47,606 bases of DNA from Zoogloeaceae bacterium (GTDB taxonomy: Bacteria > Pseudomonadota > Gammaproteobacteria > Burkholderiales > Rhodocyclaceae), in assembly GCA_031288305.1 (NCBI GenBank), contig JAITRP010000203.1, forward strand, positions 1-47,606. The letters are read 5' to 3'. Positions within the stretch are counted from its first letter, which is position 1. Each line of letters begins with the position of its first letter. Of the stretch, positions 10,554-33,563 are shown piece after piece. Position numbers and translations under genes: made by a program. The notes under the pieces were generated by a model. That model did not search any database, had not been told where the DNA came from, and saw nothing but the letters and a program-made list of their open reading frames with translations.

Positions 10554-10592
10554 GGTTAGTCTGAAAAGTTATCGAAGATAGTGTATGATATA

Positions 10593-10690
10593 GCTCGAAG
10601 TTATAACTATGCAAGTTGTATCTGTGTGGCATAACGTTTCATGGCTCGAAGTCATAGCCCTGCAAGTTATATCTGTGTGGCATAAAGTTT
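10593..10690. repeat. two tandem-spaced 47 bp direct repeats upstream of terS
   Basis: 10593-10639 gctcgaagttataactatgcaagttgtatctgtgtggcataacgttt; 10644-10690 gctcgaagtcatagccctgcaagttatatctgtgtggcataaagttt. Confidence 0.85.
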
Positions 10691-10921
10691 CCGGGAAAAT
10701 TTTGCAAAAATTTCAGGGGCGCGAGGTTGGCGCAGGGGCGGGGTGGGTTCGGAAACGTGGCGGCGGGGCTTTGTTTGCTTCGTTCGCTGAGCTTGCGGAG
10801 GAGCTTTGTTTACGGGGTGAGGCGCCCCCTCCTCGCTCCGCTCGTCGGGGAAGGTGACTTCGGATTTGTGGGTTCCAGCAGACAAGAATTCTTCTGGTCC
10901 TGGAGTCCCAGGGAGAACGTC

Positions 10922-11161
10922 ATGCACACATTCAAAACAGCCCTGCGGTGGCTTAAAGCCGCGCTGAAGCGGTTTCAAACCGCCCTCTCCCAGCTTGGCT
11001 GGAAGAGGCTTGCCGCCCTTGCAGCCGCCGGGTTTCTCGGTGGCTGCCTTTTAACGTTGATTGCCGCTTTTCATTTTGCGGCAGCATTCGTTGCCAGCTT
11101 CGCCATTGGGGCAACGCTGGCAGAAGTCGTCGGTCGCGTCTGTGAAAACGCGACGGCGTAA
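10922..11161 (+). CDS. small membrane protein, hypothetical
   Basis: 79 aa ORF with SD (ggagaa), hydrophobic helices, bounded by terminator at 11170. Confidence 0.6.
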   Translation: MHTFKTALRWLKAALKRFQTALSQLGWKRLAALAAAGFLGGCLLTLIAAFHFAAAFVASFAIGATLAEVVGRVCENATA

Positions 11162-11169
11162 TCGTCCCC

Positions 11170-11210
11170 AAGGCCGAAGCCCTCGCTTGTCGAGGGCTTC
11201 GGCCTTTTTT
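11170..11210 (+). terminator. intrinsic terminator, array copy A
   Basis: AAGGCCGAAGCCCTCG-cttgt-CGAGGGCTTCGGCCTT perfect 16 bp stem with T tract. Confidence 0.92.
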
Positions 11211-11265
11211 CCGTGCCGCTTTGCAGCGGGCATTCGCCCGGTGGAGTCGGCACAGGAGATTCAAA

Positions 11266-11424
11266 ATGAACAAGCTGCTTTTTGCTGCAACTTTCATTCT
11301 GGCGGCGCTCTGCGTTGCCGTCGTCATTGACCCGGACGCCCTGCGCGTCTGGGATTGCGGCACGGCTGCCGCCGACGGCGCGCCTGCGCGCATCGTCGCG
11401 GCGTGCAAGCACGTCGCCGAGTAA
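11266..11424 (+). CDS. small exported/membrane-anchored hypothetical protein
   Basis: 52 aa ORF, MNKLLFAATFILAALCVAVV signal-like N-terminus, SD aggag. Confidence 0.55.
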   Translation: MNKLLFAATFILAALCVAVVIDPDALRVWDCGTAAADGAPARIVAACKHVAE

Positions 11425-11428
11425 GCCC

Positions 11429-11468
11429 AAGGTCGAAGCCCTCCACACATGAGGGCTTCGGCCTTTTT
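11429..11468 (+). terminator. intrinsic terminator, array copy B
   Basis: AAGGTCGAAGCCCTC-cacacat-GAGGGCTTCGGCCTT plus T tract. Confidence 0.9.
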
Positions 11469-11521
11469 CCTGTGCCGCGTATGCCGGGGACGTTCCCTTG
11501 CGCGCGGCACGGGAGAAAGTG

Positions 11522-11731
11522 ATGTATTACGCAAACGATCCCCTGGTGAGCCTGCTGCTCGCCAGGGGAGAAATCGCCCCCGACGAAGTTGGGGGCGAAA
11601 TCGTCGACTTCGAGGCCGTCAAGTATGACGGCCTCACCGAGGTCGACGATCTGGTCGAGGGCGGCGCGTCCCTGACCAGGGAAGAAATCCGCGCCGCCGC
11701 CGACCGGCTCCGGGCGAAGTTTCGCCACTGA
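11522..11731 (+). CDS. small acidic hypothetical protein
   Basis: 69 aa ORF MYYANDPLVSLLLARGEIAPDEVGGEIVDFEAVKYDGL...; SD ggagaaag. Confidence 0.6.
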   Translation: MYYANDPLVSLLLARGEIAPDEVGGEIVDFEAVKYDGLTEVDDLVEGGASLTREEIRAAADRLRAKFRH

Positions 11732-11744
11732 GCCGGTCGTCCCC

Positions 11745-11785
11745 AAGGCCGAAGCCCTCGCTTGTTGAGGGCTTCGGCCTTTTTT
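11745..11785 (+). terminator. intrinsic terminator, array copy C
   Basis: AAGGCCGAAGCCCTCG-cttgt-TGAGGGCTTCGGCCTT plus T tract, nearly identical to copy A. Confidence 0.92.
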
Positions 11786-11853
11786 CCGTGCCGCTTTTGC
11801 AGCGGTCGTCCGCGAATGTCTCGCCGGGCGAATCTCTTGAAGGAGAATGCAGC

Positions 11854-12891
11854 ATGAATACCCTGTTCACCATCCTGCCCGCCGAGGGCAGTTTCTTTCC
11901 CGCCCTGCTGGGCGGCCAGGAAGGTTTCGCAGCCGAAGAGGCGCGGGTTGTCCCCCGCCTGCTTCGCCAGGCGTACTCGGAACTCGCCCGCGCCTGGGCG
12001 GCGGACTCCGCCACGCCGGGCGTGTCGCAAGACACGACCCTGCCGCGGTGGATGACTGCCGAGGCGCTGGCGGACGACCGCCGGCTCGACGACGAGCCAG
12101 GCGTCGAGCCTGGCCGCGAGGCCGGGTTCGACTACCCCTCCGTCGAGGAGGCGGCCTGTGCCGTCTCCCTCGTGCGGCGCTACGCGCTGCACGTGGCGCG
12201 GATTGGCGGCAATGAATGGCTCGCGGGCTTCGACGCCCGCGGCTTTGTTGCCACTGATCCGGCGGATGCCGAAGCCGTCGCCGCCGCCGCGGCCAACGCC
12301 GTGTCGCAAGACATGGTCGAGGCCGGACGTGTCGTCTGGGGCGTGCGGCGCGTGAGCGCCCAGCTTCCCAGCTTCCGGGAGTGGCGGCTCAATGCCGTCG
12401 CCCGCAGCGAGGAAGGCTCGCCCTGGCGGTTCAAGCTGGGGCTGGCCTCCCAGCTGGACGACGAGAGCCTTCTCGTCGCGGTTGACAATGAGGCCGTCAA
12501 GGCCGAGTTGCCGGCGTGGCTTCGGGGGCGCAGCTACCCCGACGCCGACGCCGACCGTTGGGAAACGGCGCTCACCCTGGCCGCCGACGCCGCCTGGCGT
12601 CGCGTCCGGGACGCCGCGCCCAAGGCGCAGGAGCGCGAACTGAAGAAGCTCGCCCTTCTCGTGGCGCACAGCCCGCGCTACGCGCAGGAGCGCGCGGCGT
12701 ACCTGGCCTCGCCGGAGTACGCCACCGAGCAGCTGGAGGTCGAAGTTCGCGCCGCCGAGCGCGCCGCAGCGGAGCAACTCCGCCAGGCGCTCCTGGCGCA
12801 ACGCCAGGACGCCCTCGCCCAGAGGGTCGGCACGGTGGCCGCGCTCAAGGAGCGCGCCACCGCCATCTTCGCCGGCCTGAAGTCGGCCTAA
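11854..12891 (+). CDS. hypothetical phage protein, 345 aa
   Basis: ORF with SD aaggaga upstream of ATG 11854; no recognised family. Confidence 0.65.
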   Translation: MNTLFTILPAEGSFFPALLGGQEGFAAEEARVVPRLLRQAYSELARAWAADSATPGVSQDTTLPRWMTAEALADDRRLDDEPGVEPGREAGFDYPSVEEAACAVSLVRRYALHVARIGGNEWLAGFDARGFVATDPADAEAVAAAAANAVSQDMVEAGRVVWGVRRVSAQLPSFREWRLNAVARSEEGSPWRFKLGLASQLDDESLLVAVDNEAVKAELPAWLRGRSYPDADADRWETALTLAADAAWRRVRDAAPKAQERELKKLALLVAHSPRYAQERAAYLASPEYATEQLEVEVRAAERAAAEQLRQALLAQRQDALAQRVGTVAALKERATAIFAGLKSA

Positions 12892-12896
12892 CCCCG

Positions 12897-12968
12897 CAGG
12901 GTCGACGTTCGTGTCGTCACGACGCGGGCTTCGACCCTGTTTTCCCGCCGCCATGTGGCGGCGTTTTA
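12897..12968 (+). terminator. double intrinsic terminator, array copy D
   Basis: CAGGGTCGA...TCGACCCTG-TTTT then CGCCGCC-atgt-GGCGGCG-TTTT. Confidence 0.8.
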
Positions 12969-12984
12969 TCGAGGAGAAAATGAA

Positions 12985-13239
12985 ATGGAAGTTGCAACCA
13001 TCGCTGTGTTGTACAGCGTTTTCGCCATCCCCGCGAGGATAGCCAGCAGCGAGTGCCTCCTGGGCGGGAGGCGCAAGCTGTGGCTGGCGATTCTCGTCGC
13101 CATCGGCGCCGTCCAGGTCGGCGTCGTTGCCGCCTTCGGCTGGTCAGGCTTCTGGGCGCTCTGCGCCGCGGCAGCCGTCGACAGCGTCATCAACTGGCTG
13201 TGGTTGCGTCATCGCGGCGCAACCATCACGCCGGCCTGA
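12985..13239 (+). CDS. small membrane protein, hypothetical
   Basis: 84 aa ORF with two hydrophobic helices, SD gaggag. Confidence 0.55.
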   Translation: MEVATIAVLYSVFAIPARIASSECLLGGRRKLWLAILVAIGAVQVGVVAAFGWSGFWALCAAAAVDSVINWLWLRHRGATITPA

Positions 13240-13255
13240 AAGGAGACAATACATC

Positions 13256-13576
13256 ATGCTGACTGCCGTCCTGGCCTTCATGGCCTTGATGGCGTTCTTC
13301 GAGACCATTCTTCTCTCCATGCTGCCGGAAGGCTGGCTGGAAAGGAAGTGGCTGAGGAACGCCATCCACGTCGCGGTGTTTGCCCTGAACCTCTGCGTTC
13401 ATTGGGGCACCGTGACCGGCACGATGGCCGCCACGGGCGCGTTCTGCGTCTCCGTGGCGGTCGTTCCCGCCTATCTGTACCTTCGTCGCCTGCTCAAGGC
13501 GAGGGACATCGACCCGCGCGACTGGCTGCTGAGTCAATTGCGCAAGGTGTTCCTCGCCCCTGAGGCGACGGCGTAA
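13256..13576 (+). CDS. small membrane protein, hypothetical
   Basis: 106 aa ORF with three hydrophobic stretches, SD aaggag. Confidence 0.55.
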   Translation: MLTAVLAFMALMAFFETILLSMLPEGWLERKWLRNAIHVAVFALNLCVHWGTVTGTMAATGAFCVSVAVVPAYLYLRRLLKARDIDPRDWLLSQLRKVFLAPEATA

Positions 13577-13890: not shown

Positions 13891-14115
13891 TCAATGCGTT
13901 GGATGCCGCCGGTTCGCGCTCGATCCGTCGTAGCGGATCGCCGTGACGATGGATCGCCCCGCGCCGAGGGCGACGAACACGAACATGGCTCCGTAGACTT
14001 CCGCCCCGATGGTGGAAGTGGGGGCTACGAAAGTTTCCAGACAGAACATGAGACCGAGACCGTAGAGCGGCAGGAGCAGGCACGACACCCACCGTGGACG
14101 TAGATTCTTTTGCAT
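13891..14115 (-). CDS. small membrane protein, hypothetical
   Basis: 74 aa MQKNLRPRWVSCLLLPLYGLGLMFCLETF..., SD ggagaacg on minus strand. Confidence 0.45.
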   Translation of the reverse strand: MQKNLRPRWVSCLLLPLYGLGLMFCLETFVAPTSTIGAEVYGAMFVFVALGAGRSIVTAIRYDGSSANRRHPTH

Positions 14116-14199
14116 GACGTTCTCCAGGAAAGACCGCGCGCAGTATGCCACAGTTTCACCAGACGTTGCCACAAAACCCGCTAGACCTTGCCAATTGGC

Positions 14200-15084
14200 T
14201 CTCCTCCCCGTTGTCCTAGGACAATATTCTTTTTCAATGACAGTGGCTAGTCACATGGCAACGCGGATGACATGAAAAACAGGGTTGTCCCGGTTTGTTA
14301 ACTACAACGGAACGTCGCTGCGCAGCTATCCATCGTATTGAGTACATGAGCATGCAAATATGACGTTTCCGAGCGAGTGCCATGAACAGAGGGGTGTGTG
14401 CCTGAAAAATGTCATGGCAGAGACATACAGCGCACCTTAACCCTCGTGGTTGATACATTTTCAGCTATTTGTTCCGACGTTCCAAAATTTTTGACTCTAT
14501 TTAGTATACACAACAAACATCACATTACCTCTTACCTTACTCAATACACACCCTATACATTAACTTTTTCAGGATCAGAACAAATCGGAACAATATGGCA
14601 TATTTCTTGTAACCACGAACTTTATAAACGTTTCAATTTTGTCTCAATTCCATTCAGCATATCTTCGCAAAGCGCGTGGTTACGCCAAACCACCACGCCA
14701 ATATCAGGACAAAATCAGGGACACCCCCGTGTTTCCTTGTCATACGCCCCCCTCATTCCCTGTTCATAAACACCATGCCCTGATCATCAAACCCCGATGC
14801 AGGCCTCTCTACGACATACGAGAGCCATGCCATTTCACTTATCATAGCCACATACCCATTCACCATGTGACATAATCTGTCGAAATTTCAAGTTGCTCGT
14901 CATAAAAACGATATTCTGCGCCCGGTTCCCGGATTTATATAACTCAAAGTTATAATTACCCTAGTTTCTTATTCCATTGCATAACGAACGGGGTTTCTTA
15001 TTCCCAAACGTTATTAGCAAGTCTCCCCGAAGACAACTACACTTCGTAACTCACGAAAAGCACGAAAACACAAACGGAGCCAAC
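14200..15084. promoter_or_regulatory. AT-rich non-coding early control region
   Basis: sharp drop in GC against flanks, no convincing ORF, perfect palindrome TTGTCCTAGGACAA (14211-14224), TATAACTcaaAGTTATA (14938-14954), precedes the early gene block. Confidence 0.6.
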
Positions 15085-32291: not shown

Positions 32292-32438
32292 ATGCCGCAC
32301 CGTCTCTATGCCTTTGCCCGGACCATGAAGAACGTGGTCAGCATCATCGGCAACCTGTTGTTGTCCGTCACCCTTGTCGCCGCGCTCTGGAACTGGCTGA
32401 AGAAAACCTTTGTTCGCCCCGCCGCCTACCAGAGATAG
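32292..32438 (+). CDS. small membrane hypothetical protein
   Basis: 48 aa ORF, SD aaggag, hydrophobic core; 3' end overlaps integrase 3' end. Confidence 0.4.
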   Translation: MPHRLYAFARTMKNVVSIIGNLLLSVTLVAALWNWLKKTFVRPAAYQR

Positions 32439-33445
32439 CCCGCCAATTCCGACGCGCGCAGGTTGGCGTAGCGTTGCAGGCTTTTCAGGTCGGTATGCCC
32501 GGTAATCTTGGCGATTTGCAGGTCGGTCAGCGTGGTGCGCTCATAGAGGCGTGAAGTCGCCTCGTGGCGCAGATCATGGAAGCGCAAGCCTTCGATGCCG
32601 GCCTGGCGCGCGCGAATGGCGAACAAGCGGCTGAGCCGATTCGAGGCCACGCGTACCGGCCTGTGTTGCCAGGAGGGGAACACCCGGCCTTCGCAGCCCG
32701 GCAGCCAGGCCGCGAGTTCGCGGCACATCACGGAACTCATGGGCACTTGCCGTTTGCGCCCGTTTTTCGTGCGAAACAGATAGATGGTTTTTTCGGACAG
32801 GGACACCTGGTCTGTCCGCAAGCTCAACATTTCAGAGAGTCGCATGGCCGTTTCCAGCGCCATGTCGAACAAGAGGCGCTCCTCCCTTGTCCGCAGCGTC
32901 TTGCGCAGAGCCTCTTCTTCCGCGGCACTGAGTCTGCGGTCGCGTTCGCCGGAAACTCCGGGTATGGCGGCGTAGCCTCGCGGCAACAGGCGCAGGGGAT
33001 TTTCCCCCAGGGGCAGGAGTCCGCGGCGCTTCGCCCAATCGAAGCAGCGCGCGAGGCAGCCGACGCGCTTCTTGATGGAGGATGCGGAGAACCGGGCGTT
33101 CTTCAGGCTCCTGACCCAGCCCTCCGCCCACTCGTAGCCGACCGACAGGGTTTTGACGCCCTTGACCCGGAGGCGGGTGTAGCGCACCAGTTCGCGCTCG
33201 GAATCCGGGAGACCGGGCGCTTCGTTGTAGGCGTCGAGCAAATCCTCCAGGGTCTGTGGCGCTCCCATCTGGGCGGCGAGTTCCGTGGGCACCGTGCCGC
33301 GGGAGAGCAGCGCGCTTGCGTAGCGGCTGAATTCCTCGGCGTCCCCGCGCGTGGGGAAGGTCATATAGACGGGCGCGTCGAGCACCCCTTTCTTCAGGAA
33401 CCGCACCTCGAAGGTTCCCGACGCTCGTTGCCGAATGGAAGCCAT
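32426..33445 (-). CDS. int: tyrosine-type phage integrase
   Basis: ALETAMRLSEMLSL (Arg I), FHDLRHEATSRL (HxxR), KITGHTDLKSLQRYANL (GH...Y); start set at ATG 33445. Confidence 0.9.
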   Translation of the reverse strand: MASIRQRASGTFEVRFLKKGVLDAPVYMTFPTRGDAEEFSRYASALLSRGTVPTELAAQMGAPQTLEDLLDAYNEAPGLPDSERELVRYTRLRVKGVKTLSVGYEWAEGWVRSLKNARFSASSIKKRVGCLARCFDWAKRRGLLPLGENPLRLLPRGYAAIPGVSGERDRRLSAAEEEALRKTLRTREERLLFDMALETAMRLSEMLSLRTDQVSLSEKTIYLFRTKNGRKRQVPMSSVMCRELAAWLPGCEGRVFPSWQHRPVRVASNRLSRLFAIRARQAGIEGLRFHDLRHEATSRLYERTTLTDLQIAKITGHTDLKSLQRYANLRASELAGYLW

Positions 33446-33563
33446 GATCGTCCTCTTTTTGTAACACGCGAGATTGCGTGAAGTTGCCCGGTGAACCGTG
33501 GTTTCAACCACAATCGGACATCGCTGCGAGGCACGATATTACACGATCCAGCACGAATAGCAA

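What the first reader, a model, noticed from the sequence alone, without database searches (positions are those of the whole stretch)
10922..13576. Terminator-punctuated array of small phage ORFs: candidate undescribed cassette system
Six consecutive plus-strand ORFs, four of them small and hydrophobic or exported, lie between terminase and the early control region. Three intergenic gaps carry near-identical hairpin terminators (AAGGCCGAAGCCCTCG-cttgt-CGAGGGCTTCGGCCTT-T6 at 11170; variants at 11429 and 11745), then ccgtgccgc and a second hairpin directly before each SD (GTGCCG...CGGCAC 11213-11253; GTGCCGCG...CGCGGCAC 11472-11510). A fourth gap has a double terminator (12897-12968). One gene plus terminator plus leader looks like a repeated unit, unlike a normal operon. 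Inference: serial attenuation, a dedicated antiterminator, or a recombining cassette array.
Basis: partly seen in the sequence, partly recalled or inferred. Interest (0 to 1): 0.72.

Follow-up and report, generated by a model that had tools for sequence, protein, structure and literature searches.

The report
Hairpin-punctuated small-gene array in a prophage
A prophage related to Pseudomonas phage KPP25 carries a row of tiny unknown genes, three of whose gaps hold near-identical RNA terminator hairpins that probably insulate each gene; relatives use the same layout with different sequences, beside a conserved control element that appears undescribed.

Summary
Six plus-strand ORFs (10922-13576) are present; four of five gaps carry strong stem-loops, three of them near-identical 61-nt terminator repeats. 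The contig holds a KPP25-like prophage, truncated at its left end. The array lies between divergent terS and the replication genes. Five ORFs are orphans; o6 belongs to a membrane family found at the same place in 46 phages.

The unit sequence is private to this prophage, but the design recurs: in 74 related phages, 117 of 198 gaps hold a strong hairpin between stop codon and SD (shuffled: 12). Units resemble each other within a phage more than between phages, and some inserted or duplicated orphan genes come with them. Linkers lack promoters. Many hairpins are not T-tailed, and some relatives lack them.

In the window every downstream SD is paired in the predicted fold, by the terminator U-tract in three of four gaps. 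I favour gene-by-gene insulation (attenuation) of small accessory genes.

A second find is a conserved ~100-nt element between terS and gene 1 in about 55-60 of 86 phages, with a covarying stem in a subset and no Rfam match. It could be an antitermination leader; this is unproven.

The parts
10561..10691 (+). Candidate promoter/operator region: sigma-70-like site (CTGAAA-17-TATGAT, 10561-10589) next to two 51-bp tandem repeats that contain AAGTTATAACT-like palindromes
   Evidence: Promoter scan (9 of 12 match; 2 found against 1.1 expected in shuffles, so weak); repeats; palindrome copies
10825..10896 (+). Window copy of the conserved leader element (CTTCGGATT at 10858; AAGAATTCTT at 10887-10896, as in KPP25)
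   Evidence: sequence model R1 (built without window and KPP25) scores 6.4 bits, E 0.0028 in 401 bases; not found at E up to 1 in the 374-kb, 20-source search
10922..11161 (+). o1, 79-aa membrane-type orphan ORF
   Evidence: no Pfam/PHROG match
11170..11206 (+). Stem-loop A1, intrinsic terminator (16 bp, T6 tail)
11208..11259 (+). Hairpin B1: U-tract + CCGUGCCG pairs with CGGCAC + SD (AGGAGA) of o2
   Evidence: Fold; duplex
11266..11424 (+). o2, 52-aa ORF with signal-like hydrophobic N-terminus, orphan
11429..11465 (+). Stem-loop A2, intrinsic terminator (repeat copy 72% identical)
11465..11517 (+). Hairpin B2: UUUUCCUGUGCCGCG pairs with CGCGGCACGGGAGAAA, covering the SD of o3
   Evidence: Fold; duplex -29.2 kcal/mol
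11522..11731 (+). o3, 69-aa acidic soluble orphan ORF
11745..11781 (+). Stem-loop A3, intrinsic terminator (repeat copy 98% identical)
11854..12891 (+). o4, 345-aa orphan ORF; position resembles the ~260-380-aa gene of relatives, but no homology to family F1 by profile comparison
12896..12940 (+). Stem-loop A4 (unrelated sequence), followed by TTTTCCC
12941..12977 (+). Second stem-loop of gap 4 (CGCCGCC-ATGT-GGCGGCG, T4) with UUUUCC pairing the SD GGAGAAAA of o5
12985..13239 (+). o5, 84-aa membrane-type orphan ORF
13256..13576 (+). o6, 106-aa membrane protein of the family with an HWGT-type motif (KPP25 gp32), the one conserved gene of the array
   Evidence: In 46 phages; alignment; 5 of 10 members match phrog_29412, unknown function

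Best explanation
This is the early accessory region of a KPP25-like prophage. It is probably transcribed rightward from a control region between terS and o1. Each small ORF is an insulated expression module. Stem-loop A, placed right after the stop codon, ends the transcript of that gene for most polymerases (intrinsic terminator) or fixes its mRNA 3' end. RNA that reads through folds so that the next SD is paired: in gaps 1, 2 and 4 the terminator's own U-tract plus CC does the pairing, and in gap 3 a small local hairpin does. Downstream genes are therefore kept low at both the transcription and translation steps, giving a stepwise decline and limiting leaky expression of small membrane proteins. 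The layout is old in this phage group; unit sequences are lineage-specific and some orphan genes come and go with their units. Shown: the anatomy, the statistics, recurrence at the syntenic locus, absence of promoters in linkers, predicted SD pairing. Inferred: termination in vivo, translational shut-off, direction of regulation, biological reason.
For: Three 61-nt terminator repeats plus a fourth double hairpin with fold z-scores -4.1 to -7.7. All four downstream SDs are paired in the predicted folds. The same tail:SD design occurs in L114 (three units), L136 and L117; for T-tailed units, own partners pair better than permuted ones (3 of 2000 permutations). At the syntenic locus of 74 phages, 117 of 198 gaps hold a strong hairpin against 11.9 shuffled, starting a median 9 nt after the stop codon. 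KPP25 has the same punctuation with other sequences. Linkers contain SDs but fewer -10 boxes than shuffles (5 against 13.4), so genes probably depend on upstream transcription. Units are more alike within than between phages (0 of 500 label permutations). Duplicated or inserted gene+unit modules occur in L144 and L029.
Against: There is no expression data. 70 of 117 hairpins in the group have fewer than 4 T in the tail window, so termination cannot be the general function. The tail:SD pairing is not significant across the group once window, L114 and L136 are removed. Isolated relative phiA008 and close relative L098 lack repeated units. KPP25, handled as a lytic phage in the literature, also has the punctuation, so protection of a lysogen cannot be the only reason.
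Confidence: 0.48

Rival explanations
1. Processive antitermination. The conserved element between terS and gene 1 is transcribed as a leader RNA (put-like) or recruits a phage protein (nut/Q-like), making RNA polymerase pass the intergenic terminators, so that the array is silent unless the leader-modified polymerase transcribes it.
For: TTCGGATTC is in 44 of 86 phages at this place. Exact CTTCGGATTCG occurs 35 times inside and 2 times outside in 1.13 Mb. A sequence model built without KPP25 finds its copy at E 7.5e-10. A covarying inner stem exists (0 of 2000 permutations; shifted controls not significant). Phages with the element have hairpins in 64% of gaps against 45% without.
Against: RNAalifold finds no consensus structure. 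The window copy is diverged (E 0.0028 in 401 bases) and its leader does not fold better than shuffles (z -0.05). L114 has T-tailed arrays without a recognisable element. No Rfam match. A promoter, operator, packaging site or origin would also be conserved here.
Confidence: 0.2
2. Stem-loops act on mRNA stability or processing rather than termination: A protects the 3' end of each gene's mRNA after cleavage in the linker, B protects the 5' end of the next.
For: Stem-loops sit directly after stop codons whether or not they have a T-tail. In relatives a stem-loop pair also precedes the first gene (L029, L050, L164), where a terminator would make little sense.
Against: In the window all three repeats keep 5-6 T after the stem and 15-16-bp GC-rich stems, as intrinsic terminators do.
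Confidence: 0.17
3. Recombining cassette array: the repeated units serve as short homologies for gene exchange, like PeSLs of T4-type phages.
For: Within-phage homogenised units; gene+unit duplication in L144; orphan genes inserted between near-identical units in L029; variable gene content on a conserved skeleton.
Against: No pair of close relatives sharing the window's unit was found, so exchange at units is not seen directly. Homogenisation could follow from duplication alone. Only 61 nt of homology.
Confidence: 0.12

Closest known systems
PeSL (promoter-early stem-loop) cassettes of T4-type phages (doi 10.1093/gbe/evq006, 10.1093/gbe/evu129; cited in PMC4503421)
   Same: Repeated intergenic stem-loop units among small, variable early genes; proposed to help gene shuffling
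   Different: No early promoter in the units here; different phage group; leader with SD pairing instead
SAS/ESAS of cluster K mycobacteriophages (PMC3203893)
   Same: Repeated sequence with inverted repeats just upstream of translation starts of small genes, phage-specific consensus
   Different: No shared asymmetric start-site sequence here; inverted repeats carry T-tails and follow the stop codon of the gene before
Terminator-rich conjugation operons with bipartite antitermination (Gram-positive plasmids such as pLS20; PMC8955417)
   Same: Several terminators inside one transcription unit and a conserved element at its start
   Different: No antitermination protein or activity identified here; small phage genes
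HK022 put antitermination RNA (PMC9378689)
   Same: Candidate cis leader upstream of early terminators in a phage
   Different: No sequence or Rfam relation found; structure supported only in a subset; function untested
Early region of Pseudomonas phage KPP25 (Kochitakasuvirus)
   Same: Syntenic locus, o6/gp32 homolog, hairpin in most gaps, leader element
   Different: Different ORFs and hairpin sequences; hairpins not annotated in the record

Membership tests
KPP25-like phages (Kochitakasuvirus relatives) | Homologous TerL, small terminase, portal, capsid and primase with the same order | tested here: met
   TerL 38%, TerS 34% only to the KPP25 group, primase 33.5% over 94%; capsid and portal families; synteny
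PeSL cassette | Stem-loop terminator repeated in several intergenic spaces | tested here: met
PeSL cassette | Early promoter within the unit | tested here: not met
   No promoter-like site in 10922-13576; linkers of the group depleted of -10 boxes
PeSL cassette | Units mediate gene shuffling between related phages | tested here: inconclusive
   Gene+unit duplication and insertion in L144, L029; no close relative with the window's unit
SAS/ESAS | Conserved asymmetric sequence at translation starts | tested here: not met
   Sequences around the six starts share only the SD
put-type antitermination RNA | Structured leader RNA upstream of terminators, conserved | tested here: inconclusive
   Sequence conserved; stem covaries in a subset; no consensus fold; window fold z -0.05
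put-type antitermination RNA | Suppresses termination in cis without phage protein | not testable with these tools
   Needs transcription assays
Bipartite antitermination (conAn-type) | Dedicated protein acting with the leader | not tested
   No candidate protein was singled out
Intrinsic terminator | GC-rich stem of 5 bp or more, loop 3-8, followed by a T-tract | tested here: met
   A1-A3: 15-16 bp, 9-11 GC pairs, T5-T6

The most novel reading that the evidence does not exclude
The conserved ~100-nt element between terS and the first array gene is a new class of antitermination leader RNA of a large, almost unstudied phage group, and the hairpin-punctuated accessory genes behind it form a switchable array of insulated cassettes that are read only by leader-modified polymerase.
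Probability: 0.16. Interest if true: 0.72.

Novelty: new variant of a known kind. Interest (0 to 1): 0.45.

Why it matters
Phage accessory regions full of small orphan genes are common, but how each new gene gets regulated is unclear. Here a whole phage group uses one layout: stop codon, stem-loop, short leader, SD. In the window the terminator's U-tract can also mask the next SD, which would couple insulation at two steps in about 90 nt. The conserved element at the head of the array, present in roughly 55-60 phages and matching no Rfam family, is a concrete candidate for a new regulatory RNA or DNA site and can be tested with isolated phages of the KPP25 group.

Tried and rejected
Known families for o1-o5: no Pfam or PHROG match. 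o4 has no relative in viral contigs or 299 family genomes and no profile relation to the ~300-aa F1 family.

The window's exact unit elsewhere: none in viral contigs or phages. The short matches in 8 family genomes look like ordinary host terminators.

Promoters in every unit (PeSL model): rejected.

Rfam: no array or leader family at threshold. Weak sRNA matches over terminators are below gathering scores and discounted.

Consensus fold of the leader by RNAalifold: none. Kept only the permutation evidence for a stem.

U-tract:SD pairing as a general rule of the group: not significant without window, L114 and L136.

boxA-like ends of small hairpins in L022 and L029: seen by eye, not general, dropped.

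The PeSL papers were not held; they are cited through PMC4503421.

Full report
What is there. The window is one whole contig (C73) of a 2.7-Mb draft genome. It carries a prophage cut off at the left contig end: capsid, portal and terminase genes on the minus strand, replication genes on the plus strand, integrase at 32426-33511. Its nearest isolated relatives are Pseudomonas phages KPP25, phiR18, YMC17/07/R4900a and CRPAP1904 and, for TerL and the primase-like gene, Aeromonas phage phiA008. The six ORFs of the finding lie between terS (divergent) and the replication genes, which is the same place as KPP25 gp26-gp32.

The repeats are real. Stem-loops at 11170, 11429 and 11745 form a 61-nt repeat family (98% and 72% identity to the first copy) that occurs only here in the genome. 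The repeated arm is found 11 times with up to 3 mismatches against 2.4 expected, and the six best copies are the arms of these hairpins. The fourth gap has two unrelated stem-loops. Folding gives z-scores of -7.0, -7.7, -4.1 and -5.9. The fifth gap (16 nt) and the region before o1 have no unit.

In the folds of gaps 1, 2 and 4, the U-tract plus CC that follows the terminator pairs with the SD of the next ORF (UUUCC with GGAGA). In gaps 1 and 2 this stem is extended by GUGCCG/CGGCAC or GUGCCGCG/CGCGGCAC. In gap 3 a small local hairpin pairs the SD. L114 (three units), L136 and L117 have the same design. For T-tailed units of the group, own partners pair better than permuted ones (3 of 2000), but across all units the effect disappears once window, L114 and L136 are removed. 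It is a recurring solution, not a rule.

Relatives. Terminase-based searches brought in about 190 related loci. I called genes on the divergent strand with a simple codon/SD scheme of my own, so gene borders are approximate. In 74 phages, 117 of 198 gaps of 45-220 nt hold a strong hairpin against 11.9 (sd 3.9) in dinucleotide shuffles. It starts a median of 9 nt after the stop codon and ends a median of 46 nt before the next start. Only 47 of the 117 have at least 4 T in the tail window. L022 has five copies of one unit; L029, L050, L114, L149, L164, L192 and others have their own families. Stem-loops and the 20 nt after them are more alike within a phage than between phages (0 of 500 label permutations for each). 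Linkers are rich in SDs and poor in -10 boxes.

Gene content. o6 belongs to family F0, found in 46 phages, an unknown membrane family (phrog_29412 for 5 of 10 members). A group of relatives shares a skeleton F3-F5-F0-F4-F1, with orphan genes in between that often carry units. L144 has a 120-aa gene duplicated in tandem with its unit. L029 has two orphan genes inserted between F5 and F0, flanked by units that resemble each other. phiA008 and L098 (Uliginosibacterium, TerL 65%) have the locus without repeated units.

A second, unexpected element. Between terS and gene 1 most of these phages share an AT-rich stretch, then GAGTCTC-CCTCCCC, then ACCCCACTTCGGATTCGG, then AAGGAGTCTCTT or a variant, with nearly fixed spacing. 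TTCGGATTC is in 44 of 86 phages in this region. Exact CTTCGGATTCG occurs 35 times inside and twice outside in 1.13 Mb. A sequence model from 28 members finds KPP25's copy at E 7.5e-10 and nine other relatives' copies at the expected place. The window copy is diverged: CTTCGGATT at 10858 and AAGAATTCTT at 10887, as in KPP25, E 0.0028 when only this region is searched, no hit in the wide search. A stem between the C-rich stretch and the bases before AAGGAGTC covaries across 46 phages (0 of 2000 permutations, z -5.5; shifted controls not significant), but the other strand gives nearly the same value, so RNA and DNA structure are not separated. RNAalifold finds no consensus, and the window's leader does not fold better than shuffles. 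Whether the element is transcribed is not known; promoter, operator, packaging site or origin remain possible.

How it most likely works. I favour insulation: each gene is closed by its own stem-loop, and read-through RNA masks the next SD. Antitermination by the leader element, mRNA processing, and recombination between units are the rivals, and they can partly coexist. None was tested by experiment.

Compared with what is known. T4-type PeSLs (and my own knowledge of those papers, which were not held) are the closest idea, but their promoter is absent here. SAS/ESAS of cluster K mycobacteriophages share position but not the conserved start sequence. Terminator-rich conjugation operons with antitermination are the best functional parallel for the leader hypothesis. 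I found no paper describing hairpin arrays in the KPP25 group; the one full text checked does not contain the words terminator, promoter or hairpin. The literature searched is open-access only, so absence is weak evidence. I rate this a new variant of a known kind.

Noticed in passing
10590-10691 and 14937-14966: Two 51-bp tandem repeats (86% identical) with AAGTTATAACT-type palindromes upstream of the array, and a third related copy just upstream of the primase-like gene; they look like operators of a phage repressor at two control regions.
   Followed up: partly
10912-10926 (+) and 14111-14125 (-): A perfect 15-nt copy of the SD-start region of o1 (GGAGAACGTCATGCA) lies inverted at the start of a minus-strand small hydrophobic ORF (MQKNLRPRW..., within ORF 13891-14172), so this ORF may be a further member of the set.
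   Followed up: no
L144 array, hairpins at 1247 and 1714 of the reverse-complemented upstream region: A 120-aa gene (MNTFIPTNG.../MNTFVPTNG...) is duplicated in tandem together with its 20-bp stem-loop unit.
   Followed up: partly
L022, L149, L155, L173: In some gaps CATGTGT after the stem-loop can pair with ACACATG that includes the next start codon, with the SD in the loop: a possible start-codon-masking variant.
   Followed up: no
KPP25, L015:12619-12834: Three 49-nt direct repeats ending in poly-T (AAACCCGCGTGGCACTAAGGCTCCAGCGTGTTACGAAATTTTTT) and an inverted partial copy in a 676-nt gap of the KPP25 array; unexplained.
   Followed up: no
L231 (G056 contig C131), about 2210-2271: A same-family genome carries terS and the leader element on a short contig with no small-gene array after it, apparently a prophage remnant.
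   Followed up: partly
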